Positions 34,321 to 61,560 of a stretch of DNA of 64,000 bases are shown in pieces. The stretch covers positions 186,001-250,000 of the forward strand of contig NZ_NNRK01000026.1 in assembly GCF_002252475.1 (NCBI RefSeq), read 5' to 3'. The translations under genes were made by a program, and so were the position numbers. The notes below the pieces were generated by a model that had not been told where the DNA came from, made no database searches, and saw only the letters and a list, made by a program, of their open reading frames with translations. Origin of the DNA: Brucella rhizosphaerae. GTDB taxonomy: Bacteria; Pseudomonadota; Alphaproteobacteria; Rhizobiales; Rhizobiaceae. Position 1 is the first letter of the stretch, and each line of letters starts with the position of its first letter.

Positions 34321-34407
34321 ATGACTGAAATAAAAAATAAAAACCGCAACTATCCGGATCATCGGTTCTCGGTCGCACCTATGCTCGATGGGGTATTGTT
34401 TTTTTAA
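34321..34407 (+). pseudogene. dusA: dusA 5' fragment split by prophage insertion
   Basis: From ATG 34321 the frame reads MTEIKNKNRNYPDHRFSVAP, then MLDGVLFF and a stop at 34405-34407. HRFSVAPMxD is the N-terminal motif of tRNA-dihydrouridine synthase A, where a functional gene continues with the FMN-binding TDRHCR block. Here the homology stops after Asp23 (codon 34387-34389) and phage sequence follows. dusA is a known integration target of prophages. The rest of the gene, possibly with a phage-supplied 5' end, should lie at the right junction outside this window. Confidence 0.85.
34355..34392. other. Predicted attL core in dusA
   Basis: The conserved dusA codons for HRFSVAPM and following Asp cover 34360-34389, then dusA identity is lost. 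The crossover must lie in or just before this stretch. Exact core length needs the right end of the prophage for comparison. Confidence 0.6.
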
Positions 34408-34447
34408 AAGTGATTGTTATTCAAATCGTTATACGAACGGTATATGC

Positions 34448-34475
34448 GATGTTGTACCGATAACGGTACAACATC
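34448..34475. terminator. Strong hairpin at the prophage left end
   Basis: GATGTTGTACCG (34448-34459) and CGGTACAACATC (34464-34475) flank ATAA: a perfect 12-base stem covering the stop codon of the PrtN-like gene. There is no T-run in the leftward direction. A second small palindrome ATACgaacGGTAT lies at about 34430-34442. It could end the leftward early transcript and stop dusA transcription, or be part of the attachment region. Confidence 0.55.
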
Positions 34476-34734
34476 AGCCGTGAAATTGTTTGTATTCGCG
34501 CATTGCAGCGGTTCGACGGTCATCCAAATAGGACGCTAGATCGTTGATGTGGACGCCTTTTGCGGCCTTCTGGCTTTCTTCAATCCGTACAAGTGGGATT
34601 TTAATATCGCCGCAAGTTACCTTGCGGACGAATTTTTCGGGCGTTAGGTGAGGGAAGTAATCACGGCAAAGATCATCGACGGGAATGATTGCTTTGCCGC
34701 TGTATTGAGCCATTAGAAGGAAAGCGGTGTTCAT
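34474..34734 (-). CDS. PrtN-like (pyocin activator family) protein, possible excisionase
   Basis: 86 residues, MNTAFLLMAQYSGKAIIPVDDLCRDYFPHLTPEKFVRKVTCGDI, full match in pattern to the PrtN family (PF11112). PrtN activates pyocin genes in Pseudomonas, but in prophages of alphaproteobacteria the family often sits beside the integrase, as Xis-like DNA-binding proteins do. Here it is the terminal gene next to attL. It overlaps the methyltransferase start by four bases. DNA-binding role likely, excisionase role inferred. Confidence 0.8.
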   Translation of the reverse strand: MNTAFLLMAQYSGKAIIPVDDLCRDYFPHLTPEKFVRKVTCGDIKIPLVRIEESQKAAKGVHINDLASYLDDRRTAAMREYKQFHG

Positions 34735-35213
34735 TTCAGCACCTCGGAAGGCTTAAGAAAACAGATCCAATGAGTGTTGGCCTGCTTGCCGGAAACGTGA
34801 CCGACAACTGGCGGCACATCCGTGAGGGCGAGGATTTCCCGCACCTTGATCTGCGTTTCGTTCCATTTGAAAATCAGTGTGCCGTGTGGTTTCAGGACGC
34901 GGAAAGCCTCGGCAAATCCCTCACGCAGATCATCGCGCCATGTCTCGCGGTTCAATGCACCATATTTTGCGCGCAACCAGCTTCTCTCACCGGCATTGAC
35001 CAGATGCGGCGGATCAAAGACGGCAAGGCTGAATGTCTCGTCGTCAAACGGCAGGTTGCGGAAGTCGATAATGCGGTCTGGTGAAATGATCAGCTCGCGG
35101 CCGTCGCAAAGGACGTGACTTTCTTCACGAATATCGCCGAAGACAGCCCGGTTATCCTTCTTGTCGAACCAGAACATGCGAGATCCGCAGCACATGTCGA
35201 GAATAGGCTTCAT
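34731..35213 (-). CDS. Phage class I SAM-dependent methyltransferase
   Basis: 160 residues with LDMCCGSRMFWFD (a motif I variant), the acidic motif FGDIRE and a DPPHL catalytic-type motif as in N6-adenine/N4-cytosine methylases. It is short and lacks a target-recognition domain. DPPH suggests amino-group methylation, perhaps of DNA to evade restriction or of RNA. Overlaps both neighbours by four bases, so it is part of the leftward early operon. Confidence 0.75.
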   Translation of the reverse strand: MKPILDMCCGSRMFWFDKKDNRAVFGDIREESHVLCDGRELIISPDRIIDFRNLPFDDETFSLAVFDPPHLVNAGERSWLRAKYGALNRETWRDDLREGFAEAFRVLKPHGTLIFKWNETQIKVREILALTDVPPVVGHVSGKQANTHWICFLKPSEVLK

Positions 35214-35635
35214 GTGTATGCCCTCACGCTGGATATTTTCAAAAACTCACGGAACGGAATGTCGCCCGCGTCCGAAACCTCTAGAAAGACATTGTACCGG
35301 GCAGCGGCGCGCGACTTGGCTACTACAATCTTCGACCATTCCCAGTACGACACGACGAAAACCTTATTGTCTGGCAACCGTTTCAGATGATCGGCGAGAG
35401 CATGACGGCCAAGGTCTGTGACGGCGAAGAACGCCATGTCGCCGTTCTGTCCGCTTTTCCGCCAGTTCGGGGATCTGGAAAACTTATTCGCTAAGTCGGT
35501 GTCCACGTCCGTTGCGAAGTGGTTCCGGGACGTTTCCTTGAGCGGGAATGTCGGACGGCCCAAGGCATGGTCTATATGGTCGATCGCTTTGTCTTTGAGG
35601 TATCGATTGACGGTAGGATTATCAATGATGATCAT
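35210..35635 (-). CDS. Unknown phage early protein
   Basis: 141 residues: MIIIDNPTVNRYLKDKAIDHIDHALGRP, then VTDLGRHALADHLKRLPDNKVFVVSYWEWSKIVVAKSRAAARYNVFLEVSDAGDIPFREFLKISSVR. Basic and mixed alpha/beta, no membrane segment. I do not recognise it. It overlaps the 23-codon gene upstream (ATGA) and the methyltransferase downstream, so translation is coupled. Confidence 0.7.
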   Translation of the reverse strand: MIIIDNPTVNRYLKDKAIDHIDHALGRPTFPLKETSRNHFATDVDTDLANKFSRSPNWRKSGQNGDMAFFAVTDLGRHALADHLKRLPDNKVFVVSYWEWSKIVVAKSRAAARYNVFLEVSDAGDIPFREFLKISSVRAYT

Positions 35636-35703
35636 GCCGCGACCTCAAGCTTGCCGTAGATCGTATGGGGCCCGGCGTTGTGCCATTCGACCGTCACTTT
35701 CAT
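35632..35703 (-). CDS. Small phage protein (23 residues)
   Basis: From ATG 35703 the frame gives MKVTVEWHNAGPHTIYGKLE and three more residues. GAGGTGA lies seven bases upstream and the stop overlaps the next start as ATGA, so it fits the tight packing of this operon. Too short to classify; real translation is likely but unproven. Confidence 0.5.
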   Translation of the reverse strand: MKVTVEWHNAGPHTIYGKLEVAA

Positions 35704-35713
35704 GGCCGTCACC

Positions 35714-35902
35714 TCAGGTCACTTGAAGTTCTTGCAGCATGCGCATCACGAACGGTTCGAGATCGGAGGCGGACATATAAACGACCTCGCGCGTCGATCC
35801 TCCACAGCCATCAGACACTTCAGCTGTGACGGTCTCGCTGCGTAACGCGTATTCGATTGCATAACGGATTTCGGTTTCGGTAGGCTTTGCTTTGGTCGTC
35901 AT
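35714..35902 (-). CDS. Unknown small phage protein
   Basis: 62 residues, MTTKAKPTETEIRYAIEYALRSETVTAEVSDGCGGSTREVVYMSASDLEPFVMRMLQELQVT. Acidic, helical at both ends, no known family. Lies between the sliding clamp gene and the 23-residue gene with short gaps, in the leftward early operon. Confidence 0.6.
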   Translation of the reverse strand: MTTKAKPTETEIRYAIEYALRSETVTAEVSDGCGGSTREVVYMSASDLEPFVMRMLQELQVT

Positions 35903-35918
35903 GGTTTCCGCGCTCCTA

Positions 35919-37046
35919 TCAACGCATTGGCATGATGATGAACAGGGGAGGGTCGCCCGCTTCGGGATATTGAACGGGTGAAATCAGACATGGGCTGTTC
36001 GACGCTTCGAGCGCGAACCGTACTTCCTCAGAACCAATCGCACTGAGGACGTTGGTGCAGTATTTGTAGCTAAGGCCGATACTGATCTCTTCCGGATGGC
36101 TTTCGGAGAGCGAAACTGCATCCTCCATATTTCCAGCTAATGGATTTTCAATTTCCAGCCGCACATCATCCGCGCCGAATGCGAATTTGATCGCGTCGGA
36201 TTTCTCACCAACGACCAGACTGACGCGGCCCACGGCTTCAAGCAGCGCTTCACGGTCTACGTGATAGTGCCTGTCGTTGCGGGTTGGGATGATGCGTTGG
36301 TAATCTGGATAAGTGCCGTCGACGAGTTTTGAAGTGACAGTCACGCCGTCCTGAAACGCGAAGCGTATCTTTCGATCCGATAGGCTGATGACAGTATCGC
36401 CACCCGCTTTCGTGCAGTGTGAAAGAAGATTGAGAATGCCACGTGGAATAATAACTCCCGGCATGCCGTCGCAGCCATCGGGAGCCTGGATTTTCAAATA
36501 GGCGAACTGATGTCCATCCGTCGCGACAAAGTTCAGCTTACCTTCATTCCCGTGCATAAATATGCCGTTGAGATAGTATCGCGACTCTTCGGTTGAAACC
36601 GCGAACCCAACATTTGAAAGTGCTCGCGATAAGTCATTTGCGGGCAAGTTAAACGAGTGCGGAAAGTTGTTGCCCGGTATCTCCGGGAAATCAGAAGCTG
36701 GTAGAACCGGAACTTGAAGCTTCGAGCGACCGGCTCTGATGTTAATAACAGCGTCATCGCCTTCAAACTCAATCTCGCAGCCGTCCGGTAGTTTGCTGAC
36801 TGCGCTGTGCAGCAGGCCGGAAGAAACCGTAAATGCCGGAAAGTCCGAAATGCCACCCTGCACGGCACGCGCCTTAACTTCCACGTCAAGGTTTGTGCCT
36901 GACACTGTCAGATGGCCGTTTTCGCACTGAATCAGTACATTGCCCAGAATTGGGACTGTTGGCTTCTTTTCCACGGCGCGGTTAGCCACAGCAAGAGCCG
37001 GAAGGAGGGCGCGTCGCTCTATCGCGAAGTGTATGATTGCTGGCAT
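35919..37046 (-). CDS. Phage DNA polymerase III beta-like sliding clamp
   Basis: 375 residues with the three-domain DnaN pattern: MPAIIHFAIERRALLPALAVANRAVEKKPTVPILGNVLIQ, then LPASDFPEIP, FVATDGHQFAYLKI, LVDGTYPDYQRIIPTRND, and the C-terminal ISPVQYPEAGDPPLFIIMPMR. Normal clamp length. A phage-encoded clamp could recruit host polymerase to phage DNA or replace the host ring. ATG 37046 follows GGGAG. It overlaps the 112-residue gene upstream by 65 bases. Not the host dnaN, which is normally beside dnaA. Confidence 0.9.
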   Translation of the reverse strand: MPAIIHFAIERRALLPALAVANRAVEKKPTVPILGNVLIQCENGHLTVSGTNLDVEVKARAVQGGISDFPAFTVSSGLLHSAVSKLPDGCEIEFEGDDAVINIRAGRSKLQVPVLPASDFPEIPGNNFPHSFNLPANDLSRALSNVGFAVSTEESRYYLNGIFMHGNEGKLNFVATDGHQFAYLKIQAPDGCDGMPGVIIPRGILNLLSHCTKAGGDTVISLSDRKIRFAFQDGVTVTSKLVDGTYPDYQRIIPTRNDRHYHVDREALLEAVGRVSLVVGEKSDAIKFAFGADDVRLEIENPLAGNMEDAVSLSESHPEEISIGLSYKYCTNVLSAIGSEEVRFALEASNSPCLISPVQYPEAGDPPLFIIMPMR

Positions 37047-37320
37047 GAGACTCCCTCTCGCGGGCTAGTTGAAATGCTTGGATTAATCGCTCTGCCGCTA
37101 TGCGCGGGATCGCCTCGCGCCTTTCCGGCGCGGCAGTATGTGTAATCAGGTCTGCTGTCGCCCGTAGAAGCCCATCAATGAGTGCGTCTAAGGTTTCGTT
37201 TGGGGGAAATCCGATTGTCCGTACTTCTCGCCATTGCTCTTGAAATGTGTCGAGCACTGCTTGTCGGGTGTCATCCGCAATCAATTGCAGGGTTGCTGGA
37301 TTTGGCCCGCCTGCGGACAA
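36982..37320 (-). CDS. Unknown phage early protein
   Basis: 112 residues from TTG 37320: SAGGPNPATLQLIADDTRQAVLDTFQEQWREVRTIGFPPNETLDALIDGLLRATADLI, largely helical, with a basic C-terminus. No recognised family. No clear ribosome site, and the 3' end overlaps the clamp gene by 65 bases. The codon pattern and position in the operon support it being real, with moderate certainty. Confidence 0.55.
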   Translation of the reverse strand: MSAGGPNPATLQLIADDTRQAVLDTFQEQWREVRTIGFPPNETLDALIDGLLRATADLITHTAAPERREAIPRIAAERLIQAFQLARERESHASNHTLRDRATRPPSGSCCG

Positions 37321-37329
37321 TTGGTGCGA

Positions 37330-37491
37330 TCAGCCGAAAATGCTTACGGCCAAGATCGCCGCACATACGCTGCCTGCAATCAGCGTGGCAATCGCGACCA
37401 TATGATCGAGCTGGCGTGCGTGCGATTTGTAAGCGGTAGGAAGATGAAATCCGCCATCAACCTCAGTTTGGAAACGGATTTCGTTATACAT
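37330..37491 (-). CDS. Small phage membrane protein
   Basis: 53 residues from ATG 37491: MYNEIRFQTEVDGGFHLPTAYKSHARQLDHMVAIATLIAGSVCAAILAVSIFG. The last 24 residues are one membrane segment. Start overlaps the stop of the previous gene as ATGTATAA. Function unknown; superinfection exclusion or membrane-acting roles are common for such genes but this is speculation. Confidence 0.6.
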   Translation of the reverse strand: MYNEIRFQTEVDGGFHLPTAYKSHARQLDHMVAIATLIAGSVCAAILAVSIFG

Positions 37492-37714
37492 GGCTGGCAA
37501 CCTGACGAACCGATAGGCGGCGTGCAAGCGCAGCTGCGCGAGCACCGAAACGGTCAACCACATCAACGGAAAAGCCGTGATGTCCAAGTGTTTCAGGGGA
37601 AACGTTGTCGCCAGAAAATGCCAGCACGCGCATTGCGTCGGCCATTTTGACAATGACATTGTCGCGGCAAGTTGGGGCAGGCTTTGAAATTGCTTTTGGC
37701 TGAACTTTAATCAT
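37484..37714 (-). CDS. Unknown small phage protein, first gene of leftward operon
   Basis: 76 residues from ATG 37714, which has GGAG at eight bases upstream; longer in-frame starts to 37741 are less well supported. MIKVQPKAISKPAPTCRDNVIVKMADAMRVLAFSGDNVSPETLGHHGF, then a basic helix. About 94 bases downstream of the PL-type promoter. No recognised family. Confidence 0.6.
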   Translation of the reverse strand: MIKVQPKAISKPAPTCRDNVIVKMADAMRVLAFSGDNVSPETLGHHGFSVDVVDRFGARAAALARRLSVRQVASHV

Positions 37715-37807
37715 GGCGATCTCCATTGCTGTTAAGCCCAAGGAGGAGAGATCGCGCCGTTACTCACTACTCAACCGGCACGATCTGCTCCGTGGGGGCG
37801 AGTAATG

Positions 37808-37836
37808 GTATAATGGGGACAAATGTCCCCTGTCAA
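37808..37836 (-). promoter_or_regulatory. Leftward early promoter (PL-like) with operator in the spacer
   Basis: Minus-strand TTGACA (37831-37836), 17 bases, TTATAC (37808-37813). The spacer is GGGGACAAATGTCCCC (37815-37830): 7-base inverted arms around AA. A second, weaker site of the same pattern is at 37844-37859 over the repressor stop. The repressor would block the leftward operon directly. Confidence 0.8.
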
Positions 37837-37857
37837 CATGAAAAAGGAAATTTGTCC

Positions 37858-38553
37858 CTAAACGCCGAACAGTTCATTCATGTCCAGCACTTTGTGAACA
37901 CTTACAATGTCATCTAGCGAGTAGGTGAGGGACATCTCAGGGTTAAGCTTCCCTATGACTAACTGCGTAGCGGTGCGCTTTACGAGGTGCCCAATCATGG
38001 CATCGTAAGTAAGGCGTCCATTGTTCTTAATCTGGATAACAATGCTATCGCCAACGCGGGCAGGTTTATGCGGATTAATGAACCGAAGATCGCCATGTTT
38101 GTGTTCTGGGTACATCGAAGACCCTTCCACAAAAATTGAATAAATGTCGCGCGAGTTCATAAGAGCCGGGGGTCGTCTAACATAGTCAATAACACCGTCA
38201 ACCAATTGAAAGGCTCCTTCCATGGACCCCGCAGCGGTTCCAAGTACGGGAACATCATTTGGCATTACTTGCCTTGACGGTGGGTTAACGTTTGCGGTTT
38301 TCACGTCATTGTTAGTGAGGTCGCTACTAACCCTTTCCACTGCCGAATCGCCCGTGGATATGAGTTGCGCAATATCAACTTCCAGCGCCTTTGCGAGCGC
38401 TTCGAGCGTATTGCCGCGTGGTGATGCGGATGGGCGCTCAAACAATTTGCGCAAATAAGTCTTATCCAATCCAGCTTTTCGACTGGCTTGTTCTGGTGTC
38501 AGATCAAGAGCTTCAAGGCGCTCTCGAATGCGCTGTTGAATAGTGTTTTCCAT
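37858..38553 (-). CDS. CI-type repressor with S24/LexA-like autopeptidase domain
   Basis: 231 residues from ATG 38553. N-terminal HTH (DLTPEQASRKAGLDKTYLRKLFE) followed by a linker and an S24 domain: predicted cleavage site Ala108-Gly109 in GTAAGS, catalytic Ser146 in VEGSSMYPEHKHGD, and a Lys near residue 192. RecA-stimulated self-cleavage would induce the prophage on DNA damage. It lies between two promoters that each contain a matching operator. Extensions to 38703 overlap the promoter region and are rejected. Confidence 0.92.
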   Translation of the reverse strand: MENTIQQRIRERLEALDLTPEQASRKAGLDKTYLRKLFERPSASPRGNTLEALAKALEVDIAQLISTGDSAVERVSSDLTNNDVKTANVNPPSRQVMPNDVPVLGTAAGSMEGAFQLVDGVIDYVRRPPALMNSRDIYSIFVEGSSMYPEHKHGDLRFINPHKPARVGDSIVIQIKNNGRLTYDAMIGHLVKRTATQLVIGKLNPEMSLTYSLDDIVSVHKVLDMNELFGV

Positions 38554-38577
38554 ACGGGGATTATCGTCCTCAACGAT

Positions 38578-38633
38578 TTGTCCGTAAGGGGGACAATTAT
38601 CCGTTGACAATGGGGAAATATGTCCCCTATGTT
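38578..38633 (+). promoter_or_regulatory. Rightward early promoter (PR-like) and operators
   Basis: TTGACA (38604-38609), 18 bases, TATGTT (38628-38633). The spacer holds GGGGAAATATGTCCCC (38612-38627), the same 16-base pattern as the PL site. A second partial site GGGGACAATTATCCGT is at 38588-38603, and TTGTCC..GGACAA flanks it at 38578-38596. Likely also regulates the leftward repressor promoter. Confidence 0.8.
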
Positions 38634-38656
38634 CCGCATTGTTAGCGGAATGAGGA

Positions 38657-38992
38657 ATGTTGGCGGTGTCATCAGTGAAAAGCAGGCTCATCGAAGATCT
38701 CATCTCAGAAGCTGATCGCTATTGCGAATTGGCGGGGGTGTCACGTTCGTCTGTTTCTAAGACACTGTTTGGTCGCGGCGGACATATCGACGATTTGATC
38801 GCCGGTAAGCGCGATCTATCAACAGGCATCTTCGAGCGTGCGATGGGGTGGCTGAAAGAACGGTCTGTCGCTGCTCCTGCTAATGACTGCGTTTCGCCTG
38901 CTGACCTCCCCAGTGGCGAAGCTGGGGCGCGCTGTAATAATGCTGGGCAGCGCGCCCCGACCGCAAATTCCGATTTGGTGGCAGCGCCATGA
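38657..38992 (+). CDS. Cro-like regulator
   Basis: 111 residues by ATG 38657; GTG 38666 is an alternative with better spacing from GAGGA (38652-38656). KSRLIEDLISEADRYCELAGVSRSSVSKTLFGRGGHIDDLIAGKRDLSTGIFERAMGWL resembles a helix-turn-helix (LAGVSRSSVSKTLF). The tail is Ala/Pro rich. First gene of the rightward transcript, 24 bases past the -10, the position of cro. Function by position and pattern only. Confidence 0.65.
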   Translation: MLAVSSVKSRLIEDLISEADRYCELAGVSRSSVSKTLFGRGGHIDDLIAGKRDLSTGIFERAMGWLKERSVAAPANDCVSPADLPSGEAGARCNNAGQRAPTANSDLVAAP

Positions 38993-39137
38993 AATCATCA
39001 TTCGTGTCCTTTCATAAGCGTTGGACCTGTGGTCCGCCTCGTTTCGAGTAGATGGTCAAGCTTTAACGGCGCGGCCTGAGAGTTTCACCGAATCCTTTGA
39101 CGACTTTTTTTCCTTGAAATTTTCAGGGGGGTGTTTC

Positions 39138-39602
39138 GTGCGCACTATTTCCGAGCAAGAACAGCGTTCGCTTAAGTCTGCAACCGATGGCGCTTATGCG
39201 TTGGCGGGTGGCATTAGCTGCATTCTGCCATTTACCCGCGTCGGTACTTCGACGCTTTCCAAGTATGCATCATTCAATGATGAGCATCACGACAGTTTCA
39301 TGCCGATTGATGTTGCTATCGAGGTTGATCGCAAAGCGAAATCACCGACGATCATTAAGCAAGCTGCGGAACTGCTTGGTTATGAACTGGTTGCTGCCAA
39401 TGCTGTGATTGACGGTGATCACGCGCCGCTGACGGCAATGGATGCGCACCGCGTTATGTCTGAAACGATGGACGTTTCGCAGGCTGTTCTTGCAGCTCTG
39501 GCAGATGGTCGCATCGATGCTGGTGAACGCAAGATCATCGCCAAGGAAGCGCGCGAGGCAATGCGGGCGCTTCAAGACCTGCTGCGCAAGGTAGGGGCAT
39601 AG
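39138..39602 (+). CDS. Phage CII/CP76-type regulatory protein
   Basis: 154 residues from GTG 39138 (AGGGGGG upstream); the frame is open to 39021 but that section reads like leader. LAGGISCILPFTRVGTSTLSKYASFNDEHHDSFMPIDVAIEVDRKAKSPTIIKQAAELLGYELV has the layout of the Phage_CP76 family (PF06892), phage regulators placed after cro. C-terminal helices likely dimerise. Probably sets the lysogeny decision or activates early genes. Confidence 0.75.
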   Translation: MRTISEQEQRSLKSATDGAYALAGGISCILPFTRVGTSTLSKYASFNDEHHDSFMPIDVAIEVDRKAKSPTIIKQAAELLGYELVAANAVIDGDHAPLTAMDAHRVMSETMDVSQAVLAALADGRIDAGERKIIAKEAREAMRALQDLLRKVGA

Positions 39603-39604
39603 CG

Positions 39605-39871
39605 ATGGCTTCCGTCTCAAGCCTTGTTGATCAATGGATCGCTGACAACGGCGCTCCCCGGCGGTTCGAACCGGAAGTAAGCGGGAGCTTTGAATACTTC
39701 AACTGCTATCTGCATCGCTTTGGTATCCGCCTGCGCATGCAGGGCTGGCGCTGTCAATACTCGCAAAACGGTGGTCAATGGCGTCCCATTCCTCGCCGCC
39801 GGGTGCGGAAACTGGTTGACGAGTTGCGCAAGCTTGAAGGATTGGAACCCCTCCGGGCGGTGCGGCAATGA
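39605..39871 (+). CDS. Unknown small phage protein
   Basis: 88 residues: MASVSSLVDQWIADNGAPRRFEPEVSGSFEYFNCYLHRFGIRLRMQGWRCQYS and a basic WRPIPRRRVRKLVDELRKLEGLEPLR tail. Strongly basic C-terminus suggests nucleic-acid contact. No family recognised. Begins two bases after the CII-like gene and overlaps the next ORF at ATGA. Confidence 0.65.
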   Translation: MASVSSLVDQWIADNGAPRRFEPEVSGSFEYFNCYLHRFGIRLRMQGWRCQYSQNGGQWRPIPRRRVRKLVDELRKLEGLEPLRAVRQ

Positions 39872-39984
39872 TCAAGCGCCTGCTTAAGCACGATTTTCTT
39901 ATCCCCGTCATCGTCGCTGTCCTAATCAATCTGATAGCGGCTTCTCCTTTTTTTATAGCCATTTATTTGGCGGAAGGGCGCTGA
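39868..39984 (+). CDS. Small phage membrane protein (38 residues)
   Basis: ATG 39868 overlaps the upstream TGA. MIKRLLKHDFLIPVIVAVLI then NLIAASPFFIAIYLAEGR: one hydrophobic helix after a basic start, inside-positive. Fits between neighbouring genes with no gap. Role unknown. Confidence 0.55.
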   Translation: MIKRLLKHDFLIPVIVAVLINLIAASPFFIAIYLAEGR

Positions 39985-39985
39985 C

Positions 39986-41278
39986 ATGGATGCACCTGTC
40001 CATATCAAGATTGCCGATATCGATGTTCGCGACCGCTTGCGCGAGGTCGATGCATCCAAGGTTGAAGCACTCAAGCAATCCTTTGCCGAACTGGGTATGC
40101 GCACGCCGATCACGGTTCGGGTCGGTGAGGACGGTTTACCGTTTGTACTATCAGCGGGTGCCCACCGTCTGGAAGCTGCCCGGCAGATGGGCTGGCTGGA
40201 AGTTCCCGGCTTCATTCGTGATGAAAGCAAGCTTGATTCCGAGTTGTGGGAAATCGATGAAAATCTAGCACGTTCGGAATTGACGGCTGCTGATCGTGCC
40301 GTCTTCACCTTTCGGCGCAAAGAACTTTACCTGCTCAAATATCCGGAAACACAACATGGCGGCGACCGGAAATCAAGCCGCCAACTTGGCGACTTGATCG
40401 AACGACAAGAGCGCCGCAGTTTTGTCGCTGCGACGGCGGAACTGACGGGCAAAACCGAGCGGTCTATCCAGCGCGACGCCGAACGCGGTGAGAAGATTTG
40501 CGAAGCGGCACTGCGCCTGCTGCGGGGAACGCGTCTCGACAATGGCGTGACACTGGATCGGCTCAAAAAGCTTCCGAACGATTTGGCACAGATCGCCTAC
40601 ATCGAGGGCGCGCTTGCGGATGAAAAGCGTATTCGGGGCGAAAGCAAGGAAATCCGCACGCACCAACAAAAGGTCAAGCATGCTGTTCGCCTGACAAATA
40701 TGGCGATGATCGCCGATTTGGGAAAAGCAACTGCGCCTGCGAAGTTGGATCGTATCTATTCGGTTTATTATGCAGATCCAGCATGGAAATTCCGGGTTCA
40801 CTCGGAGGTGACGGGCGGCGAGAAGAGCGCCGATAATCATTATCCGACCATGACTACGGACGACATCGTGACGGAAATGGTCGAGCTGATAGGCGGCAAA
40901 AATCCTGCTGTATTGTTTCTATGGGCTACTAATCCGATGCTTCCTGATGCCCTGCACGTGATGGAAGCATGCGGCTTCAAATACGTTCATCACTGGATTT
41001 GGGACAAAGTTGACATTGGCAATGGTTACTGGGGGCGCGATCAGCACGAATTGTTGTTGATTGGTCGCCGGGGCGATATTGCGTGCCCGTTGCCGGAAAT
41101 GTTGCCCCCGACCGTTCATCGCGAGAAAAAGGGCAAGCACTCTGCAAAGCCTGCTTATTTCGCGGAACAGATCGAGAAATTTTATCCCGAAGTTGCGAAA
41201 CTCGAGCTTAACGCTCGCGGCCCGCGAAAGGGCTGGGATGTATGGGGGCATGAGGCGAATGGGCGGGTTGTGCCATGA
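39986..41278 (+). CDS. ParB/Srx domain fused to MT-A70-type adenine methyltransferase
   Basis: 430 residues. Residues 5-100 form a ParB/Spo0J-like N domain (SAGAHRLEAARQMGW, box II) with helices after it; residues about 255-425 form an MT-A70 domain with the DPAW motif (264-267) of N6-adenine methylation, FLWATNPMLPDALHVMEACGF, and GRRGDIACPLPEMLPPTV. It would methylate adenine in DNA (or RNA), with the ParB part for DNA binding. The combination occurs in phages of Proteobacteria. It starts two bases after the preceding stop. Confidence 0.88.
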   Translation: MDAPVHIKIADIDVRDRLREVDASKVEALKQSFAELGMRTPITVRVGEDGLPFVLSAGAHRLEAARQMGWLEVPGFIRDESKLDSELWEIDENLARSELTAADRAVFTFRRKELYLLKYPETQHGGDRKSSRQLGDLIERQERRSFVAATAELTGKTERSIQRDAERGEKICEAALRLLRGTRLDNGVTLDRLKKLPNDLAQIAYIEGALADEKRIRGESKEIRTHQQKVKHAVRLTNMAMIADLGKATAPAKLDRIYSVYYADPAWKFRVHSEVTGGEKSADNHYPTMTTDDIVTEMVELIGGKNPAVLFLWATNPMLPDALHVMEACGFKYVHHWIWDKVDIGNGYWGRDQHELLLIGRRGDIACPLPEMLPPTVHREKKGKHSAKPAYFAEQIEKFYPEVAKLELNARGPRKGWDVWGHEANGRVVP

Positions 41279-41556
41279 CCGACACGATGCTCCCCATTCT
41301 TCGCGCAATGAACGATGCCGGGACCGACGCAGAGCGCGCCGTTGTGCTGCTGACGTGTCCGATTTCAATCATGTTGAAGTATCGGCAGGTGCTGGAAAGC
41401 GCCTGCGCTCGACACAAGTTCGATGCTGGTAGCGAGTATCTCGTTTGCTTTTATGCTGCCATGCATCAGACGCGTTTTCGTGGAAACGTTCGCGGTGCTG
41501 CATTGAAGCATGCCGAAGGACGACTGCTGCTATTATCCGAGCAGGTGCCGTCATGA
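41275..41556 (+). CDS. Unknown phage protein
   Basis: 93 residues from ATG 41275, overlapping the previous stop (ATGA). MTDTMLPILRAMNDAGTDAERAVVLLTCPISIMLKYRQVLESACARHKFDAGSEYLVCFYAAMHQTRF. Helical, three cysteines, no family recognised. Confidence 0.65.
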   Translation: MTDTMLPILRAMNDAGTDAERAVVLLTCPISIMLKYRQVLESACARHKFDAGSEYLVCFYAAMHQTRFRGNVRGAALKHAEGRLLLLSEQVPS

Positions 41557-42068
41557 GTGCTGACGCTTCTGATCTGCGCCGCATACGCGCGAAACTGGCG
41601 GCGCTGGAAGGCGCTGACTGGCAGCTGTGCTGCGAGGGTGATGTTTCGTTCGTTGAGGCGAAGACGCGACATGGCGAGCTTAATAAGGTCGCCACGTTCC
41701 ATCCCGGCGCGACATTTGACGAGATTGATTTCATCGTAAGTGCGCCGCGCATGGTGACAACTATGCTCGAATTGGTTGATCGGGCAATTGTTGCGATGCG
41801 ACAGCGTGGGCCAAAGCAAGGCGGACAGCGCCAGTTGCAGAACTATGCAGCTGAGGCTGCAATGAAGTGCGACGACGACGCGTTCAAGGCTTTTCTTGAG
41901 CAACGGCACGGCCTTGAGTGGCCTTTAACAAAGGAACGGGCAGCGGAAAAGCTGCGCACGATCCTGAAAATACAATCCAGAAAAGAACTGAACGAAAACA
42001 GCGCTGCGGCTGATCGCTGGCGGGATCTGCGCGCTGCTTTCGAAGCATGGCTAAGGGTGGGACAATGA
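41553..42068 (+). CDS. Unknown phage protein
   Basis: 171 residues from ATG 41553 (ATGA overlap). N-terminal ADASDLRRIRAKLAALEGADWQLCCEGDVSFVEAKTRHGELNKVATFHPGATFDEIDFIVSAPRMVTTMLELVDRAI is a pattern common in small phage proteins of rhizobial prophages; the C-terminal half (QNYAAEAAMKCDDDAFKAFLEQRHGLEWPLTKERAAEKLRTILKIQSRKELNEN) reads like a partner or loader of replication. No assigned function. Confidence 0.65.
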   Translation: MSADASDLRRIRAKLAALEGADWQLCCEGDVSFVEAKTRHGELNKVATFHPGATFDEIDFIVSAPRMVTTMLELVDRAIVAMRQRGPKQGGQRQLQNYAAEAAMKCDDDAFKAFLEQRHGLEWPLTKERAAEKLRTILKIQSRKELNENSAAADRWRDLRAAFEAWLRVGQ

Positions 42069-43237
42069 GTATTGCCGTCATGTCACGGATATTCAAAAAA
42101 CAGTTAGGCTCATCAAGCCGGAAGATGCTTGCGGTTCGTCTGGCTGACTTTGCGGACGACAACGGGCGCGGCATTTGGCCGTCTGTAGGCAAATTGGCGC
42201 GTGAAACCGACATGTCGGAACGCACAGTGCAGCGTTTGTTGCGCGATTTTGTGGATGAAAATCTGCTTATTGTTGTCTCTACAGCAAGCGGGCGTCCGGG
42301 TGAAACGACCCGATACAACTTCAACATGAAGGTGCTTTACGGTCTGCCGGACACTGATATTGCTGTCGACGGGTGTCATGGTGTCACCGGTGACACGGTG
42401 TCACCCGTGACAACGGCGGCTGAGACGGGTGACATTGACGACGCCGACGGGTGTCATGGTGTCACCCGAACCGTCATAGAACCATCAGATAAACCATCAT
42501 CTGAGAGAGAGCGCGAGAGCGATCAGGAAAGCAGGGAAAACCGGAAGGCCATCGAGCGTGCATTCAAAAAGGCTTTCCACGTTTGGCCGACTGCGGTCAC
42601 GGACAGCGAGCCTGACGCGTTACGGGTCTGGAATACGCTCTCGCCGGAAGATCGCTTGGCGGCTTCGGATGGTGCGGCTCGTTACGTCGAGGCCGCAAAG
42701 GCCATTGGCCGCAAGGTTGTATGCTCCTATGCGGTCTATCTTCGAGAAAAGCGTTGGGAAAAGCTGCCAGCGAAAGCGCCGGTCGAACAATCGGGTTCGG
42801 TGCCAGCGCCGCAACTTGGCAAGATTTGGGGCGCACGCGTCTATGAGCTTTTGCTGAATGGTCCAACGCAGGCTGTCTCACTGAATGCATTCGAGCGGGA
42901 CCTCGCAGATAGCGGACGCTTTACGGCTGAGGCCCTTCTTCGCGAAAAGCAGGCACGGCAAGGTTTCCCGGCTGTGAATGAATTGTTCGAACGAGCTGCA
43001 AACCGTCGCGGTGCGCTTGTTCCTGCACGATTGCAGGCAATCAAGGACTTGCTTGTTCAGGTTCGTATTGGTGGTGACGAATGGACCTCTTGGGAAGCTT
43101 TTCACCTTGAGCGCGGTTGGCCTTGGTTGCCTGATACGGGCAATGCCGAATGGGCTTATTTCCCGGCAGGTGGGCCGGAAGGTTTGAACGGGTTCGAGAT
43201 TGCTTTGAGGGGATTGGGTGAAAATGATGGCAATTGA
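42065..43237 (+). CDS. O-like replication initiation protein with helix-turn-helix
   Basis: 390 residues from ATG 42065. N-terminal winged helix: SRKMLAVRLADFADDNGRGIWPSVGKLARETDMSERTVQRLLRDFVDENLLIVVS, the pattern of phage replication proteins. A low-complexity linker (residues about 95-160) contains two DGCHGVT blocks, encoded by the DNA repeat cluster at 42368-42467. The C-terminal domain follows. Lambda O likewise holds its origin inside the gene, so the linker may be the origin. Overlaps the preceding gene at ATGA and the NusG-like gene by 20 bases. Confidence 0.8.
   Translation: MSIAVMSRIFKKQLGSSSRKMLAVRLADFADDNGRGIWPSVGKLARETDMSERTVQRLLRDFVDENLLIVVSTASGRPGETTRYNFNMKVLYGLPDTDIAVDGCHGVTGDTVSPVTTAAETGDIDDADGCHGVTRTVIEPSDKPSSERERESDQESRENRKAIERAFKKAFHVWPTAVTDSEPDALRVWNTLSPEDRLAASDGAARYVEAAKAIGRKVVCSYAVYLREKRWEKLPAKAPVEQSGSVPAPQLGKIWGARVYELLLNGPTQAVSLNAFERDLADSGRFTAEALLREKQARQGFPAVNELFERAANRRGALVPARLQAIKDLLVQVRIGGDEWTSWEAFHLERGWPWLPDTGNAEWAYFPAGGPEGLNGFEIALRGLGENDGN
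42368..42467. repeat. Repeat cluster, candidate phage replication origin
   Basis: A 22-base block starting CGACGGGTGTCATGG occurs at 42368-42389 and 42446-42467. Between them are a perfect 16-base palindrome GTGTCACCGGTGACAC (42381-42396) and a second inverted repeat TGTCAC-CC-GTGACA (42399-42412). GGTGTCA or its complement occurs at least seven times in the stretch. It lies in the linker of the O-like gene, where lambdoid phages hold iterons. Confidence 0.6.
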
Positions 43238-43880
43238 TCAACGTCATATTGATATCGCATTAGCATCTGCTCTCAGTGAGGCACATTGCCGGGCGATTGA
43301 TAAGGTGATCACAGAGCGTCGTCGTATCGCTCGTTTGAGGCTGCATGCAGCGAATCGCATGAGTGATGATTCTCCTTGGATGGTGTTGCAGGTGGTATCG
43401 AGCAGAGAATTAGCCGTGCGTGATGCTCTTCTTAGTGAGAATATTGAGGTGCTTGTCCCCATGAAAATGGGGCCGAAAATTCGCAGGCAGCACCGTGAAC
43501 TGCCTCCGAGAATGCAGCCTGTAATGAACGGGTATGTACTGGTTCGCTGTGCAGTTACCAATGAATGCATTGCCGGCTTGTTGAGTTTTGATGGGGTGGT
43601 TTCGGTTCTCGGTGGCTATGAAACTCCGTTTCTGGTGAGCGCGGAAAAGGTTATTCTTTTCAAGGTGAAAGCCGAAGGCGGTGAGTATGATTATGAACAT
43701 TTTCACCGCAAATTCATTGGCGTTAAATGGGCGCGTGTGTCCGATGGTCCGTTCGCTGGATGCCGTGCTGAATTGGTTTCAGGCGGCTCTAAGGGCAATG
43801 GTCTGGTCGTGGTAGAGGTGTCCATCATGGGCAGGTCAGTTGCTATGACAGTACCTATTGCAATTCTCGAACCGTTGTGA
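43218..43880 (+). CDS. NusG/RfaH-like transcription factor of the phage
   Basis: 220 residues from GTG 43218 (or ATG 43224/43227). NGN-type domain: SPWMVLQVVSSRELAVRDALLSENIEVLVPMKMGPKIRR, with MNGYVLVRCAVTNECIAGLLSFDGVVSVLG, then a KOW-type end: KWARVSDGPFAGCRAELVSGGSKGNGLVVVEVSIMGRSVAMTVPIAILEPL. NusG paralogues bind RNA polymerase and suppress pausing or termination. Last gene of the early operon, immediately upstream of a hairpin-rich gap and the late genes, the position of antiterminator Q in lambda. Confidence 0.85.
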   Translation: MKMMAIDQRHIDIALASALSEAHCRAIDKVITERRRIARLRLHAANRMSDDSPWMVLQVVSSRELAVRDALLSENIEVLVPMKMGPKIRRQHRELPPRMQPVMNGYVLVRCAVTNECIAGLLSFDGVVSVLGGYETPFLVSAEKVILFKVKAEGGEYDYEHFHRKFIGVKWARVSDGPFAGCRAELVSGGSKGNGLVVVEVSIMGRSVAMTVPIAILEPL

Positions 43881-44091
43881 GCTTAATCCGCTCACGGGAT
43901 GATCCGGTATGAATAGTGAGCCTCGATACACGGTAAAACGTGGGGACTAGTTCCTGAGGTGGTCGCGCTCGGACCCCGCCTTGACCGTCTCAAACAAGAG
44001 ACACCGATTCAGGGCCAGTGCGTAAGCTATGTCTGAAATTCACCAATCACTTTGAGCGCCCTTCGAGGCGCTCTTTCTATGTGAGGTTAGT
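43881..44091 (+). other. Early/late junction leader with hairpins and relic reading frame
   Basis: No intact gene. GTGAGC-ttaatcc-GCTCAC (43877-43895) spans the stop of the NusG-like gene; GAGCGCC (44054-44060) pairs with GGCGCTC (44067-44073), followed by TTTC. A short frame MNSEPRYTVKRGD from ATG 43910 stops at an amber codon, and the -1 frame then continues LVPEVVALGPRLDRLKQETP to 44034. The region could be an antiterminator target, a decayed gene, or both. Confidence 0.45.
44054..44078 (+). terminator. Hairpin before the late genes
   Basis: GAGCGCC-cttcga-GGCGCTC followed by TTTCT, 18 bases before the HNH gene. A weak intrinsic terminator that an antiterminator could override. Confidence 0.5.
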
Positions 44092-44493
44092 TTGGCTTCA
44101 AAGCCCAGAACCTTCAGGCCTGCTCACCTCGGCACAGTCAAGCAAGAGCGAGCAGCTTATGAGGTTAGACGCGGCAGCGCTCGTGATCGTGGCTATACGT
44201 CCCGATGGGACAAGGCGGCGGTCACATATAAGCGCGACAATCCGCTCTGCATTGGATGCGAGGCTGTTGATCGCGTCGAGGTTGCCAAGGTCGTTGATCA
44301 CATCATCCCACATAAGGGCGACCAGTCGCTGTTCTGGGATAAGGCCAATTGGCAGGCATGCTGCGCCATGCACCACGATATCGTCAAACAGTACCTTGAA
44401 CGTCAGTTCGAACAAGGCCTCTTGAGTGCAGGCGACCTCAGGTTGACCAGCTCCATCGCGAAGGCTGCGACCCTGAGGTTGATGCCAAGGTAG
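44092..44493 (+). CDS. HNH endonuclease
   Basis: 133 residues from TTG 44092, with GAGG nearby. KRDNPLCIGC and VDHIIPHKGD ... WQACCAMHHDIV give the zinc cysteines and the HNH catalytic His. In HK97-like cos phages, HNH proteins encoded next to the terminase are needed for DNA cutting and packaging. Its place directly upstream of the P27-type small terminase fits that role. Confidence 0.88.
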   Translation: MASKPRTFRPAHLGTVKQERAAYEVRRGSARDRGYTSRWDKAAVTYKRDNPLCIGCEAVDRVEVAKVVDHIIPHKGDQSLFWDKANWQACCAMHHDIVKQYLERQFEQGLLSAGDLRLTSSIAKAATLRLMPR

Positions 44494-44621
44494 GGGGGCG
44501 GTCGAAAGTTCGGGGGCCGGAGGGCCGGGACCGGTGGGTGATAGCTAAAAACCCGGCGCGATATTTTCGGCGATAACTTTTTTTTCTGCACCTTCGGGGT
44601 GCCAAACAGGCGGTTCGAAGT
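44494..44621 (+). other. Candidate cos region between HNH and small terminase
   Basis: 128 bases with a G-rich stretch 44494-44540 (GGGGGCCGG, GGGCCGGGACCGG) and a small hairpin GCACC-ttcgg-GGTGC at 44587-44601. The cleavage site cannot be located from this sequence alone. Confidence 0.35.
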
Positions 44622-45260
44622 ATGGGACGGCGTAAAGACGATCCACAATTGCAACAGGCCAAGGGTTTTCCCGGTCGGCGCAAGCGTAAAGTAGAGCAGG
44701 AGCTGGAAGCCATCGCGGTTGCAGCGGAGAAATCCGGCACCGATGTTGATCCGTTTCCGGTTCCTGCTGAGTTCGCCAAAGCGCCTGCATACTGGTCTTA
44801 TGCAATACGGCTCTGGAAAGAGCTTTCCGACATCATGTTCAAACAAGGGCGCAGGCGTCCAGCTTATCGTGGTGCGCTCGCTCGTTACTGCTGGTGGATG
44901 CAGCAATTCTTTAGCTGCGCAGAGCAGCTGCGCAAGGATCTGCCGAAGGGCGGCGTAACCATCATGGTTAAAAAGGGTGACGGGGAATACGTACCTCGCA
45001 CCCATCCCAATATCGATTTTATAGCCAAGGCGGAAACAGCACTTCGCCTTTTAGATGCCGAGTTCGGTTTCACGCCAATGCGCGATCAGGATCTTATCCG
45101 GACCGAGTCCTTCAATGCTGGTCAGGGTCGATTGCCGCTTGGCGGCACGCATCCGCAATCGGGCGTGCAGCGTCCGGCATCTGATGACGATTCTGACGCC
45201 GATCCGATGGGGTTGATGAATGGGGCAGACAGCCCACCACCGGGAGCGAGACCAAACTGA
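44622..45260 (+). CDS. Phage terminase small subunit, P27 family
   Basis: 212 residues. MGRRKDDPQLQQAKGFPGRRKRKVEQELEAIAV and VPAEFAKAPAYWSYAIRLWKELS are P27-family blocks. It recognises the packaging site and recruits the large subunit. C-terminal 40 residues are acidic and disordered. Its end overlaps the large subunit by 41 bases. Confidence 0.9.
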   Translation: MGRRKDDPQLQQAKGFPGRRKRKVEQELEAIAVAAEKSGTDVDPFPVPAEFAKAPAYWSYAIRLWKELSDIMFKQGRRRPAYRGALARYCWWMQQFFSCAEQLRKDLPKGGVTIMVKKGDGEYVPRTHPNIDFIAKAETALRLLDAEFGFTPMRDQDLIRTESFNAGQGRLPLGGTHPQSGVQRPASDDDSDADPMGLMNGADSPPPGARPN

Positions 45261-47001
45261 CGGCTGGGCCGCTTACAATCTGCCATCGTGGTTGGCAGAT
45301 GTTGCGACAGATCCAGCTTATGAATGGGCGCTTTCAGGTTGGAAACGGGCTGCCAGCGTTCCGGGTGCTTGGTTCGATCACGGCAAAGCCGACAAAGTTG
45401 TCGCTGCATGGCCGAAGATCTTCCGCCTCACCAATGACCGTTTCAAAGGCGTATCGTTTCGTCTGGTCAAGTGGCAGGAAATTACGGTTCGCTTGCTGGT
45501 CGGCTGGAAAAAGCCGATTGAAGTCATCGACCCGGCAACGCACAAACCCTGCATTGAGCATATCCGGATCCTCAAGCGGCTGGATCTCTGGATTCCGCGT
45601 AAGAACGGTAAATCGGAATTTCTGGCAGCGCTCGGCGTCCTTTTCTTCGTATTGGAGAAGGTCAACGGTGCCGAGGCCTATGTTTTCGGGCGCAATGAAG
45701 ATCAGGGCCGCGTACCGTTCGGCAAGATGCAGGATATTATCCGGGAGGCCAACGGCCTTCTGGAAGATGCGCAGGGCAATGAGCGCATTTCGCTGCATGA
45801 TAAATCGTTCTTCCTGCGCGAGACATCATCGCTCTGTCAGCTGCTCACTGGTTCGCCGGACGGTAAACACGGACGTTCTCCAACCGTCATCGTTGGCGAC
45901 GAGATCCACGAATGGAAAACCCGCGAACTTGCCGACACGCTCCGACAGGGAACGGGTGCTAGACTTCAGCCTATCGAGCTTTATGCGTCTACGGCTGGCC
46001 GGAAGCAAAACCGCACCGGCTTTGAGTGGTTCGAAGAGTCTCTCGCCATCATGCGCGGCGAGATGGACGATCAAACGACACTCGTTGTCTATTTCGGCAT
46101 AGGCGAAGATGACGATTGGACAGACGAGGAAGTCTGGCGCAAGGCTAATCCCAGCCTTGGTTTGACACCAACGCTTGATTATCTGCGGACTGAGTTCAAG
46201 AAAGCGAAGGGCAGACCGGCTCTCGAAGCTGTATTCCAGTGTTACCACCTTAATCGCTGGGTTGATCAGCTTTCCGGCTGGATCCCTCGAGCGAAGTGGA
46301 ATGCCTGCACGGTTGATGCCAAATCTTGGTCGCAGCTTTGGGAGCGGAATAAGGGCCGCAAGGCCTATTTGGCCTGCGACGTATCATCGACCCGCGATAT
46401 CACGGCACTTGTCGTGGTTTTCCCACCTGACGATGACAATGACAAGTGGGTGATAATCCCGCTCTTCTGGGTGCCGGAAGCCACGCTCGACGAACGTGCA
46501 GAGCAGGATCGGCGTGTTGATTGGCAGAAGTGGGTGCGGGATGGCGCATTGCTGACAACACCGGGCGATTTTGTTGATCAGTCCTTTGTCCAGCAAGCCA
46601 TTCTCGATGCATTTGCCCAGTTCGATATTCTGGCCTTTGGCTACGATCCTTGGAATGCCAGCAAGCTTGCGGGTGATTTGCAGCATGAAGGGATGGACCC
46701 TGAGTTGCAGATCCAAATGCGGCAAGGTCATCAGACACTGTCTGAGCCAACCAAGGAAATCGAACGGCTCATCTTTGCGCGAAAGATCGAACATGGTGGC
46801 CATCCGGTCCTTGCGTGGATGTTCGGACACTCAACTGTGCGGTTTGACGCAAACCTTAATTACGTGCCGGACAAGAAAAACTCGCTCGATAAGATTGATG
46901 GCGTCGTCGCTACCGTCATGGCCGTTGGATTAGCCGCTGGCGAAGTTGATGACGGAACGTCTGTCTATGAAGAGCGCGGCATCGTGGAGATTGAAATCTG
47001 A
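45220..47001 (+). CDS. Phage terminase large subunit
   Basis: 593 residues of the Terminase_1 / HK97 type. Walker A is IPRKNGKS (126-132) and Walker B is VIVGDE (223-228). The C-terminal nuclease region has ACDVSSTRDITALVVV and YDPWNASKLA. It pumps DNA into the procapsid and cuts it. The pore of the portal is encoded next, with a one-base overlap. Confidence 0.95.
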   Translation: MGQTAHHRERDQTDGWAAYNLPSWLADVATDPAYEWALSGWKRAASVPGAWFDHGKADKVVAAWPKIFRLTNDRFKGVSFRLVKWQEITVRLLVGWKKPIEVIDPATHKPCIEHIRILKRLDLWIPRKNGKSEFLAALGVLFFVLEKVNGAEAYVFGRNEDQGRVPFGKMQDIIREANGLLEDAQGNERISLHDKSFFLRETSSLCQLLTGSPDGKHGRSPTVIVGDEIHEWKTRELADTLRQGTGARLQPIELYASTAGRKQNRTGFEWFEESLAIMRGEMDDQTTLVVYFGIGEDDDWTDEEVWRKANPSLGLTPTLDYLRTEFKKAKGRPALEAVFQCYHLNRWVDQLSGWIPRAKWNACTVDAKSWSQLWERNKGRKAYLACDVSSTRDITALVVVFPPDDDNDKWVIIPLFWVPEATLDERAEQDRRVDWQKWVRDGALLTTPGDFVDQSFVQQAILDAFAQFDILAFGYDPWNASKLAGDLQHEGMDPELQIQMRQGHQTLSEPTKEIERLIFARKIEHGGHPVLAWMFGHSTVRFDANLNYVPDKKNSLDKIDGVVATVMAVGLAAGEVDDGTSVYEERGIVEIEI

Positions 47002-48317: not shown

Positions 48318-49216
48318 AATATGCAATGATCATGCAGGCCCTTATGGAAGAGCGCTGGGCCATGGCCGAAGGCAAGCTGCAAGCGATCCTAGATCTAATG
48401 GCCGATCAGTCTTCTGGTATCAAATATTCTGCTGATGAGATTGAGGCTCGTATTGGTAGACAGACTGAACAGGATGTCGCCCGGCAAGATGGTGACGTAC
48501 AGATCCTGCCGTTGCGCGGGGTTATCGCCAATCGTATGAACATGATGTCGAGCATTTCGGGCGGTACCAGCAATGAAGGTTTCGCGCAGCTCTTTCAGCG
48601 TGCGGTGCGGAACGATGCGACCAAGGCCATTATCATTGATACAGATTCGCCGGGTGGCGCAGTCAGTGGCACCCCGGAACTGTCGTCTATGATCTTCAAT
48701 GCTCGCGGCATCAAGCCGATCATTGCTCACGTCAACTCTACCGCTGCCAGTGCTGCTTATTGGATTGCGACTGCAGCCGATGAAATCGTCGTTACACCTT
48801 CGGGATCTGTCGGTTCTATCGGAGTATTCGGTATTCACGATGATCTGAGTGGGGCGCTCGAAAAGGCTGGCGTCAAGAAAACGATCATTAAGGCTGGGCG
48901 CTACAAGGCTTCTGGCCATCCCTTCGGCCCGCTTGATGACGAAACAATGGCACGTAAGCAAAAGCAGATTGATGCTGCCTACGATATGTTTGTCACCGAC
49001 ATCGCCCGCAATCGTGGCGTTGATGTCGATAAGGTGCGCGGCAGCTTTGGCGAAGGTGACATGGTTGACGCGTCCGAAGCGGTTTCGCTCGGTATGGCCG
49101 ATAAGGTCGCAACGCTTGAAGATACTTTGAAGCGCTTCGGTGTTTCTCAATATGGCGGCGTACAGCGCCGTAAGTCTTTCGCACCTGCACGTGAGCGGCG
49201 CGCTCTCGAAATCTAA
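48314..49216 (+). CDS. S49-type prohead protease
   Basis: 300 residues, SppA/ClpP-like. IDTDSPGGAVSG near residue 110, Ser146 in NSTAASAAYW as nucleophile and Lys198 in AGRYKASG as base. This fold is used to mature HK97-like capsids by removing the delta domain. Basic tail RRKSFAPARERRALEI. The capsid gene follows. Confidence 0.9.
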   Translation: MKYAMIMQALMEERWAMAEGKLQAILDLMADQSSGIKYSADEIEARIGRQTEQDVARQDGDVQILPLRGVIANRMNMMSSISGGTSNEGFAQLFQRAVRNDATKAIIIDTDSPGGAVSGTPELSSMIFNARGIKPIIAHVNSTAASAAYWIATAADEIVVTPSGSVGSIGVFGIHDDLSGALEKAGVKKTIIKAGRYKASGHPFGPLDDETMARKQKQIDAAYDMFVTDIARNRGVDVDKVRGSFGEGDMVDASEAVSLGMADKVATLEDTLKRFGVSQYGGVQRRKSFAPARERRALEI

Positions 49217-49306
49217 TCATCCAGCCCAGCGCGGTTGAGTGTGACGTTCGCGAACCGGCGCGAGCGGACGAATAGCTATTGTCCGGTATCTCCATGGAGA
49301 ATGAAA

Positions 49307-50734: not shown

Positions 50735-50813
50735 TCTCCCTCGCAACTGAAACAATGATGGGCCGCAGTTGCGGCTCACTTTGATCTGTCGAAAACCAGA
50801 AAGGTACACACAA

Positions 50814-51206: not shown

Positions 51207-51255
51207 CCAGTGTCGGCCTGCCTGAGTGCAGGCCGCTTCCTCAAGGAAAAATTCA

Positions 51256-51795: not shown

Positions 51796-51797
51796 TC

Positions 51798-53454: not shown

Positions 53455-53456
53455 TC

Positions 53457-53870: not shown

Positions 53871-53942
53871 GGCCTCATAGCATCGCCAGCGCCGTTCGGC
53901 GTTGGGCATTTCTCAACAATCAAACATTATGGAGATGAGGCC

Positions 53943-56271: not shown

Positions 56272-56274
56272 TCA

Positions 56275-61537: not shown

Positions 61538-61560
61538 TCTGAACAACAGGTAAAATCCTA

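What the first reader, a model, noticed from the sequence alone, without database searches (positions are those of the whole stretch)
34321..34407. Prophage integrated in dusA
The host reading frame MTEIKNKNRNYPDHRFSVAP followed by Met and Asp is the start of DusA but stops making sense after 34389, where phage DNA starts. dusA is a known integration site for a specific family of tyrosine integrases. No integrase is present at this left end, although the PrtN-like gene is next to the junction, so the integrase should lie at the unseen right end. The site tells which dusA form is produced in the lysogen and where attB is.
Basis: partly seen in the sequence, partly recalled or inferred. Interest (0 to 1): 0.7.

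Follow-up and report, generated by a model that had tools for sequence, protein, structure and literature searches.

The report
Prophage that replaces dusA's start
A 43-kb virus sits inside the host's tRNA-modifying gene dusA, cutting off the gene's own beginning and supplying a substitute one; this is a known kind of insertion, shown here with both ends, and in two related genomes the borrowed beginning seems to have stayed after the virus was lost.

Summary
The finding is correct, and its missing half was found. The window is G000:C18:186001-250000; the right end lies about 13 kb beyond it. There are the rest of dusA, an adjacent divergent tyrosine integrase and a direct repeat: 11 bp exact (CCTATGCTCGA, window 34378-34388), 17 of 21 bp over the wider att site. 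The element is 42,930 bp. In 24 of 30 same-genus loci examined, dusA is uninterrupted and follows this left flank. The only other sizeable Dus match in the genome is distant (31% identity), so neither refuting result occurred. dusA is not destroyed: the prophage supplies a start codon and 22 residues, giving an open 340-aa DusA. The PrtN-like gene at the left end belongs to the family of RdfN, the proven excision factor of a Vibrio dusA element. All this matches published dusA-specific elements: a new member of a known kind. Two modest additions: paired candidate integrase arm-type sites (TGTTGTACY) at both ends, with matching words at both ends of several other elements; and two relatives in which the element is gone except about 0.2 kb carrying the phage-type dusA start. 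Excision, transcription and DusA activity were not tested.

The parts
34321..34388 (+). displaced host 5' end of dusA (start codon and 22 codons up to and into the core), left flank of attL
   Evidence: translation; continuous with dusA in 24 of 30 same-genus loci examined
34378..34388 (+). attL core CCTATGCTCGA; its partner in attR is C18:263308-263318 (L004:14308-14318), outside the window
34450..34473 (.). inverted pair of TGTTGTACC, candidate left integrase arm sites (partners at L004:14147-14155, 14165-14173, 14178-14186, outside the window)
   Evidence: same words at both ends in B. thiophenivorans and B. tritici; binding inferred
34474..34734 (-). PrtN/RdfN-like excision-factor gene, 86 aa
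   Evidence: PF11112 1.4e-29; phrog_1300 'excisionase' 5.2e-32
34731..35213 (-). phage DNA methyltransferase gene, overlaps the excision-factor gene by 4 bp
   Evidence: phrog_954 2.2e-79; coordinates
37858..38703 (-). CI/LexA-type repressor gene (HTH_3 and Peptidase_S24) upstream of the leftward gene row that ends in the excision factor
34389..64000 (.). part of the prophage inside the window (terminase 45220-47001, portal 47001-48317, protease 48314-49216, major head protein 49235-50734, tape measure 56685-59930, tail fibre 61560-); it continues to C18:263308

Best explanation
A temperate, siphovirus-like prophage (42,930 bp) is integrated by a dusA-specific tyrosine integrase into the 5' end of dusA of a Brucella sensu lato (Ochrobactrum-type) host. 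Recombination at the CCTATGCTCGA core separates the host promoter and first codons from the gene and joins the remainder to a phage-encoded start codon and 22 codons that encode an equivalent strand (KFAVAP for RFSVAP). The lysogen would therefore make a full-length chimaeric DusA from phage-supplied signals. The integrase gene diverges from the new dusA start with 96 bp between the two start codons; the integrase probably binds TGTTGTACY arm sites on both sides of the core, and the PrtN/RdfN-like protein at the other end probably drives excision, which would restore the native gene. Shown: both ends, the empty site in relatives, gene content, the open reading frame. Inferred: strand exchange at this core, arm binding, excision, promoter activity, DusA activity.
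For: Both ends on one contig with an 11-bp exact, 17-of-21 wider repeat. Empty sites in 24 of 30 same-genus loci examined. Integrase: PF00589 8.5e-20; R218, H302, R305, H328, Y337 invariant in 10 aligned integrases. In 70 of 80 integrase relatives dusA is upstream and divergent; in 71 of 71 such loci, own included, the frame is open to an in-frame start codon. PrtN-like gene beside a dusA-start remnant in 14 of 27 loci, own included. The phage-encoded stretch aligns to solved DusA chains from query residue 16 on (3b0v, 3.3e-79). Published analogues: excision, RdfN and restored dusA expression in a Vibrio element (PMC8409611, passages); same class described in PMC4482086.
Against: No excision, transcription or protein data exist for this element. 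The consensus promoter scan found nothing in the forward direction at the new dusA start, so the replacement promoter is unproven here. Eight integrase relatives have no dusA within the 3 kb fetched upstream. Thirteen of 27 PrtN loci showed no dusA remnant by the strict pattern used and were not inspected.
Confidence: 0.93

Rival explanations
1. The arrangement is an assembly error: the dusA start and the dusA remainder were separated by misjoined contigs.
For: Draft genome of 36 contigs.
Against: Both ends lie on one 663-kb contig, with repeat, integrase and excision-factor gene in the expected places; the same arrangement recurs in B. thiophenivorans (G002) and B. tritici (G017).
Confidence: 0.01
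2. The TGTTGTACY repeats are not integrase arm sites but operators for the PrtN-like protein or another phage regulator.
For: They flank the integrase start and the 3' end of the PrtN-like gene; two of the left copies form a palindrome, as operators often do; nothing here shows what binds them.
Against: They occur at both ends around the att core, and in other elements the word changes but tends to match between the two ends; in B. tritici the left pair stays near the core although about 600 bp separate it from the PrtN-like gene. None of this excludes binding by RdfN, which also acts at the att sites.
Confidence: 0.3
3. The integration inactivates dusA and the new 5' end is an accident without use.
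For: No promoter-like site above chance upstream of the new start.
Against: Open frame with a start in 71 of 71 loci; phage-side Ala in 71 of 71 with all four codons, and V/I, S/A, F/L in 68, 69 and 68 of 71; the phage-type start is kept where the element is gone; a Vibrio element was shown to keep dusA expressed (PMC8409611).
Confidence: 0.05

Closest known systems
dusA-specific islands and prophages with DAI integrases (Farrugia et al. 2015, PMC4482086)
   [quoted passage not shown] Bradyrhizobium sp. BTAi1, named there, is among my integrase relatives (L074, 58% identity).
   Different: New host record as far as the passages that I read go: 'Ochrobactrum' does not occur in that paper. Arm-type sites are not named there ('arm-type' 0 times).
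IMEVchUSA3 and other Vibrio dusA elements with RdfN (PMC8409611)
   Same: PrtN-domain RDF at the end opposite to the integrase; [quoted passage not shown]
   Different: That is a mobilizable island controlled by a conjugative plasmid's activator; this is a phage with a CI/LexA-type repressor.
ICE SXT in prfC (named in PMC8409611, passage)
   Same: Element replaces promoter and N-terminus of the gene it enters.
   Different: Other gene and integrase.

Membership tests
[quoted passage not shown]
dusA-specific element (DAI family) | Tyrosine recombinase of the DAI family next to dusA | tested here: met
   PF00589; conserved R, H, R, H, Y columns in 10 sequences (which columns are catalytic is recalled); all six phages that PMC4482086 lists as DAI bearers have namesakes among the hits: AH2 54.4%, H66 51.5%, BcepIL02 47.4%, DC1 47.3%, BcepMigl 46.6%, mEp460 (record mEp460_4F5) 34.4%. 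No tree with the Rci outgroup was built.
dusA-specific element (DAI family) | About 21-bp semiconserved direct repeats in attL and attR | tested here: met
   17 of 21 identical; the published logo itself was not seen
dusA-specific element (DAI family) | Element supplies a new dusA 5' end in frame | tested here: met
   340-aa open frame
dusA-specific element (DAI family) | Excision as a circle | not testable with these tools
   no reads or cultures available
RdfN (PrtN-domain recombination directionality factor) | PF11112 domain, small protein, at the element end opposite to the integrase | tested here: met
   PF11112 1.4e-29, 86 aa; position
RdfN (PrtN-domain recombination directionality factor) | Needed for excision | not testable with these tools
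   Shown only for IMEVchUSA3 (PMC8409611)
Temperate tailed phage | Terminase, portal, protease, major head protein, tape measure, repressor, integrase | tested here: met
   particle production not tested

The most novel reading that the evidence does not exclude
dusA-specific integrases use lineage-specific arm-type sites that match at both ends of each element (TGTTGTAC, TGTTGTAA, TGTTGCAC, TGTAGCA types), some of them in the strip that also carries the phage-supplied dusA start, so the integrase could control dusA; and hosts can become permanently dependent on this phage strip, keeping it as a domesticated dusA promoter and start after the phage is lost.
Probability: 0.45. Interest if true: 0.5.

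Novelty: new member of a known kind. Interest (0 to 1): 0.3.

Why it matters
It completes a clean case of a prophage that swaps the start of a housekeeping gene. The comparison adds testable predictions: where the integrase binds, how phage and dusA transcription may be linked, and that the substitution can outlive the phage.

Tried and rejected
Second intact dusA elsewhere: looked for and not found; the other sizeable Dus hit is a distant paralogue (31%), and the third Pfam hit (27.1 bits, over the cut-off, profile 74-134) is a short match in a 451-aa frame that I did not examine further.

A terminator at the left palindrome: none found there; the one terminator-like site is at 34610-34627, inside the PrtN-like gene, 1 found against 1.0 expected. 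A promoter at the new dusA start: the only hit is on the minus strand and inside dusA, 1 found against 0.5 expected. A promoter for the leftward gene row: none on the minus strand in 37650-38800. These scans cover sigma-70-type consensus only.

A tRNA as the att site: no tRNA in the window; L004 was not scanned.

A near relative of the phage: no megablast match of 12 kb of it (window 34400-46399) among phage records.

Wider search for decayed copies in another bacterial family (centre G069): 139 of 149 genomes matched; I read the 30 loci returned; 8 have the MADK-type phage start and all 8 also have an integrase match, cut short in one (L163). Two others (L167, L169) have starts somewhat like a phage type and no integrase; I could not tell whether they are native. 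So loss of the element with retention of the start is not shown to be general.

Arm-site test, results against: only 8 of 14 elements exceed all 200 shuffles of their left end; L066, L045, L072 and L074 do not, L089 and L099 tie. For five of the 14 pairs (L053, L054, L066, L045, L100) the two ends lie on contigs of different length, so that they are ends of one element is assumed. The 14 are those of 27 PrtN loci in which the pattern found a dusA remnant; 13 were dropped. The shuffles keep base composition only, not dinucleotides.

Notebook error: entry 3 says 16 of 27; the output shows 14 of 27, used here.

Full report
What is there. The window is G000:C18:186001-250000 of a 4.9-Mb, 36-contig genome. 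Window 34321-34407 reads MTEIKNKNRNYPDHRFSVAPMLDGVLFF*. A Pfam Dus search of the whole genome found dusA at C18:263302-264201 on the same strand, 43 kb to the right, a distant Dus at C18:556476-557303, and one short match (27.1 bits) on C27. I fetched C18:249001-268000 (L004). It holds dusA as a 340-aa ORF at L004:14242-15264 (+) and a tyrosine integrase on the minus strand ending at 13045. The integrase relatives align from MGTII, so I take the integrase as L004:13045-14145; 96 bp then lie between the two divergent start codons.

The junction. The shared core CCTATGCTCGA lies at window 34378-34388 and L004:14308-14318, once in each sequence; over the best 21 bp, 17 are identical; the distance between the cores is 42,930 bp. 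The core begins at codon 23 of the chimaeric gene, so 22 residues are encoded by phage DNA alone. Both sides encode nearly the same strand: RFSVAP in the host remnant and KFAVAP in the phage part; the phage part aligns to the start of solved DusA chains.

Empty sites. One search covered 60 genomes, 35 of them of this genus, own included. I examined the 30 same-genus loci that were fetched; five same-genus genomes (G001, G006, G013, G014, G027) came without a locus. Twenty-four have an uninterrupted dusA with the window's left flank in front, five (own included) have a phage-type start, and one (L024) had no flank match. The host genus is Brucella in the broad sense: G002 and G017 share contig lengths with B. 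thiophenivorans DSM 7216 and B. tritici LMG 18957, and the NCBI lineage of B. intermedia shows Brucella within a Brucella/Ochrobactrum group. The species was not determined.

The integrase and its neighbours elsewhere. A scan of genome contigs kept 80 of 85 relatives; two of them are the B. thiophenivorans and B. tritici loci also seen. In 70 of 80, dusA is upstream and divergent; with own included, 68 of 71 have 165-255 bp between the integrase's first conserved Met and the dusA Arg that follows the att region. In the other three (L108, L109, L114) the distance is larger, in two because the integrase match begins inside the protein. Of the ten without dusA, two (L044, L112) lie at contig edges; eight were not followed up. 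In 71 of 71 the frame is open upstream of the core to an in-frame ATG, GTG or TTG at least 20 codons before that Arg. At the codon two before the core Met, Ala is present in 71 of 71 with GCG 35, GCA 17, GCC 13, GCT 6; going outward, V or I is in 68, S or A in 69, F or L in 68. Conserved residues with varied codons suggest selection for protein, although constraint on the att site at the first two codon bases cannot be separated.

The excision factor. The gene next to attL (34474-34734, minus) matches PF11112 at 1.4e-29 and phrog_1300, 'excisionase', at 5.2e-32. PMC8409611 (abstract and passages seen) shows that the PrtN-domain protein RdfN is required for excision of a Vibrio dusA element. 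I searched PF11112 in the genomes of 30 of the 80 relatives: 22 have it. Of 27 PrtN loci (24 there plus own, G002 and G017), 14 have a truncated dusA start beside the gene by a strict pattern. In the window the gene overlaps the methyltransferase gene by 4 bp and closes a leftward gene row behind a CI/LexA-like repressor; control through that repressor is plausible but inferred. PMC8409611 asks which signals drive rdfN in prophage-like dusA elements (passage).

Candidate arm sites. TGTTGTACY occurs three times in the window (0.23 expected; two at 34450 and 34465, one at 25007 outside the prophage) and four times in L004 (0.10 expected; 14147, 14165, 14178, and 12432 inside the prophage away from the end). 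The left pair starts 62 and 77 bp after the core; the right three end 122-153 bp before it. B. thiophenivorans (three right, two left copies of GTTGTAC) and B. tritici (two right, two left) carry the same words at both ends. In 14 elements with both ends read, right and left ends share more 7-mers within an element (mean score 16.6) than between elements (6.2; 182 comparisons) and than with shuffled left ends (means 1.7 to 2.7), but only 8 of 14 beat all 200 of their shuffles. Typical words are TGTTGTAC, TGTTGTAA, TGTTGCAC and TGTAGCA. 'Arm-type' occurs 0 times in either dusA paper; in a listing that puts papers with more of the terms first, the first rows held only two of arm-type, dusA and integrase (10 of 109 rows seen).

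Lost elements with a kept start. In G031 and G012 the only close dusA has the phage-type start, and the own right end matches over 256 bp (86%) and 220 bp (81%), which take in integrase residues 2-26 or 1-13, the intergenic strip and the phage dusA codons. No PrtN-like gene was found in either, and elsewhere only integrases of 25-28% identity. dusA is full length in both, 352 and 340 aa. In G031 other genes stand upstream, read by eye as ordinary host genes; one has a DUF982 domain. In G012 a transposase-like gene lies about 0.6 kb upstream. G012 is 72% complete and its contig is 6.7 kb, so it is the weaker case. The simplest reading is that the phage strip remained as the dusA start when the rest was lost. 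Searches for prior reports combined dusA with Ochrobactrum (10 of 23 rows seen) and dusA with scar, prophage, remnant and domesticated (10 of 913 rows seen); I read only those listings, so I claim no more than that I met no such report.

Mosaicism. The own terminase has a 94% identical second copy at C14:209184-210953, whereas G002 (B. thiophenivorans), whose integrase is 87% and PrtN-like protein 99% identical, has only a 22% terminase match. The integration module and the phage body thus seem to have been exchanged.

Known or new. Farrugia et al. 2015 (PMC4482086; abstract, section 10 part 1 of 3, section 15 and passages seen) describe the class: a dusA-specific integrase family, 21-bp repeats, island-supplied dusA 5' end, prtN in 60 of 94 islands. 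The features that I could test are met. The finding is a new member of a known kind. The arm sites and the kept strips are modest additions.

Noticed in passing
window 35919-37046 (-) and L004:6787-8115 (-): The prophage encodes a DnaN-like sliding clamp (all three DNA_pol3_beta domains) and a Y-family polymerase (IMS domain), an unusual pair for a phage.
   Followed up: partly
window 43218-43880 (+): Phage NusG-type protein (PF02357; phrog_6386 transcription antiterminator) ahead of the late genes.
   Followed up: no
window 39986-41278 (+): Fusion of a ParB_N-like part (just under the Pfam cut-off) and an MT-A70 methyltransferase domain in one protein.
   Followed up: no
G000:C14:209184-210953: A second copy of the terminase (94% identical) elsewhere in the genome, so probably a second related prophage with another integration site.
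   Followed up: no
L080, L088, L104, L106, L107, L110, L111, L113: Eight integrase relatives have no dusA in the 3 kb upstream: possibly other target genes.
   Followed up: no
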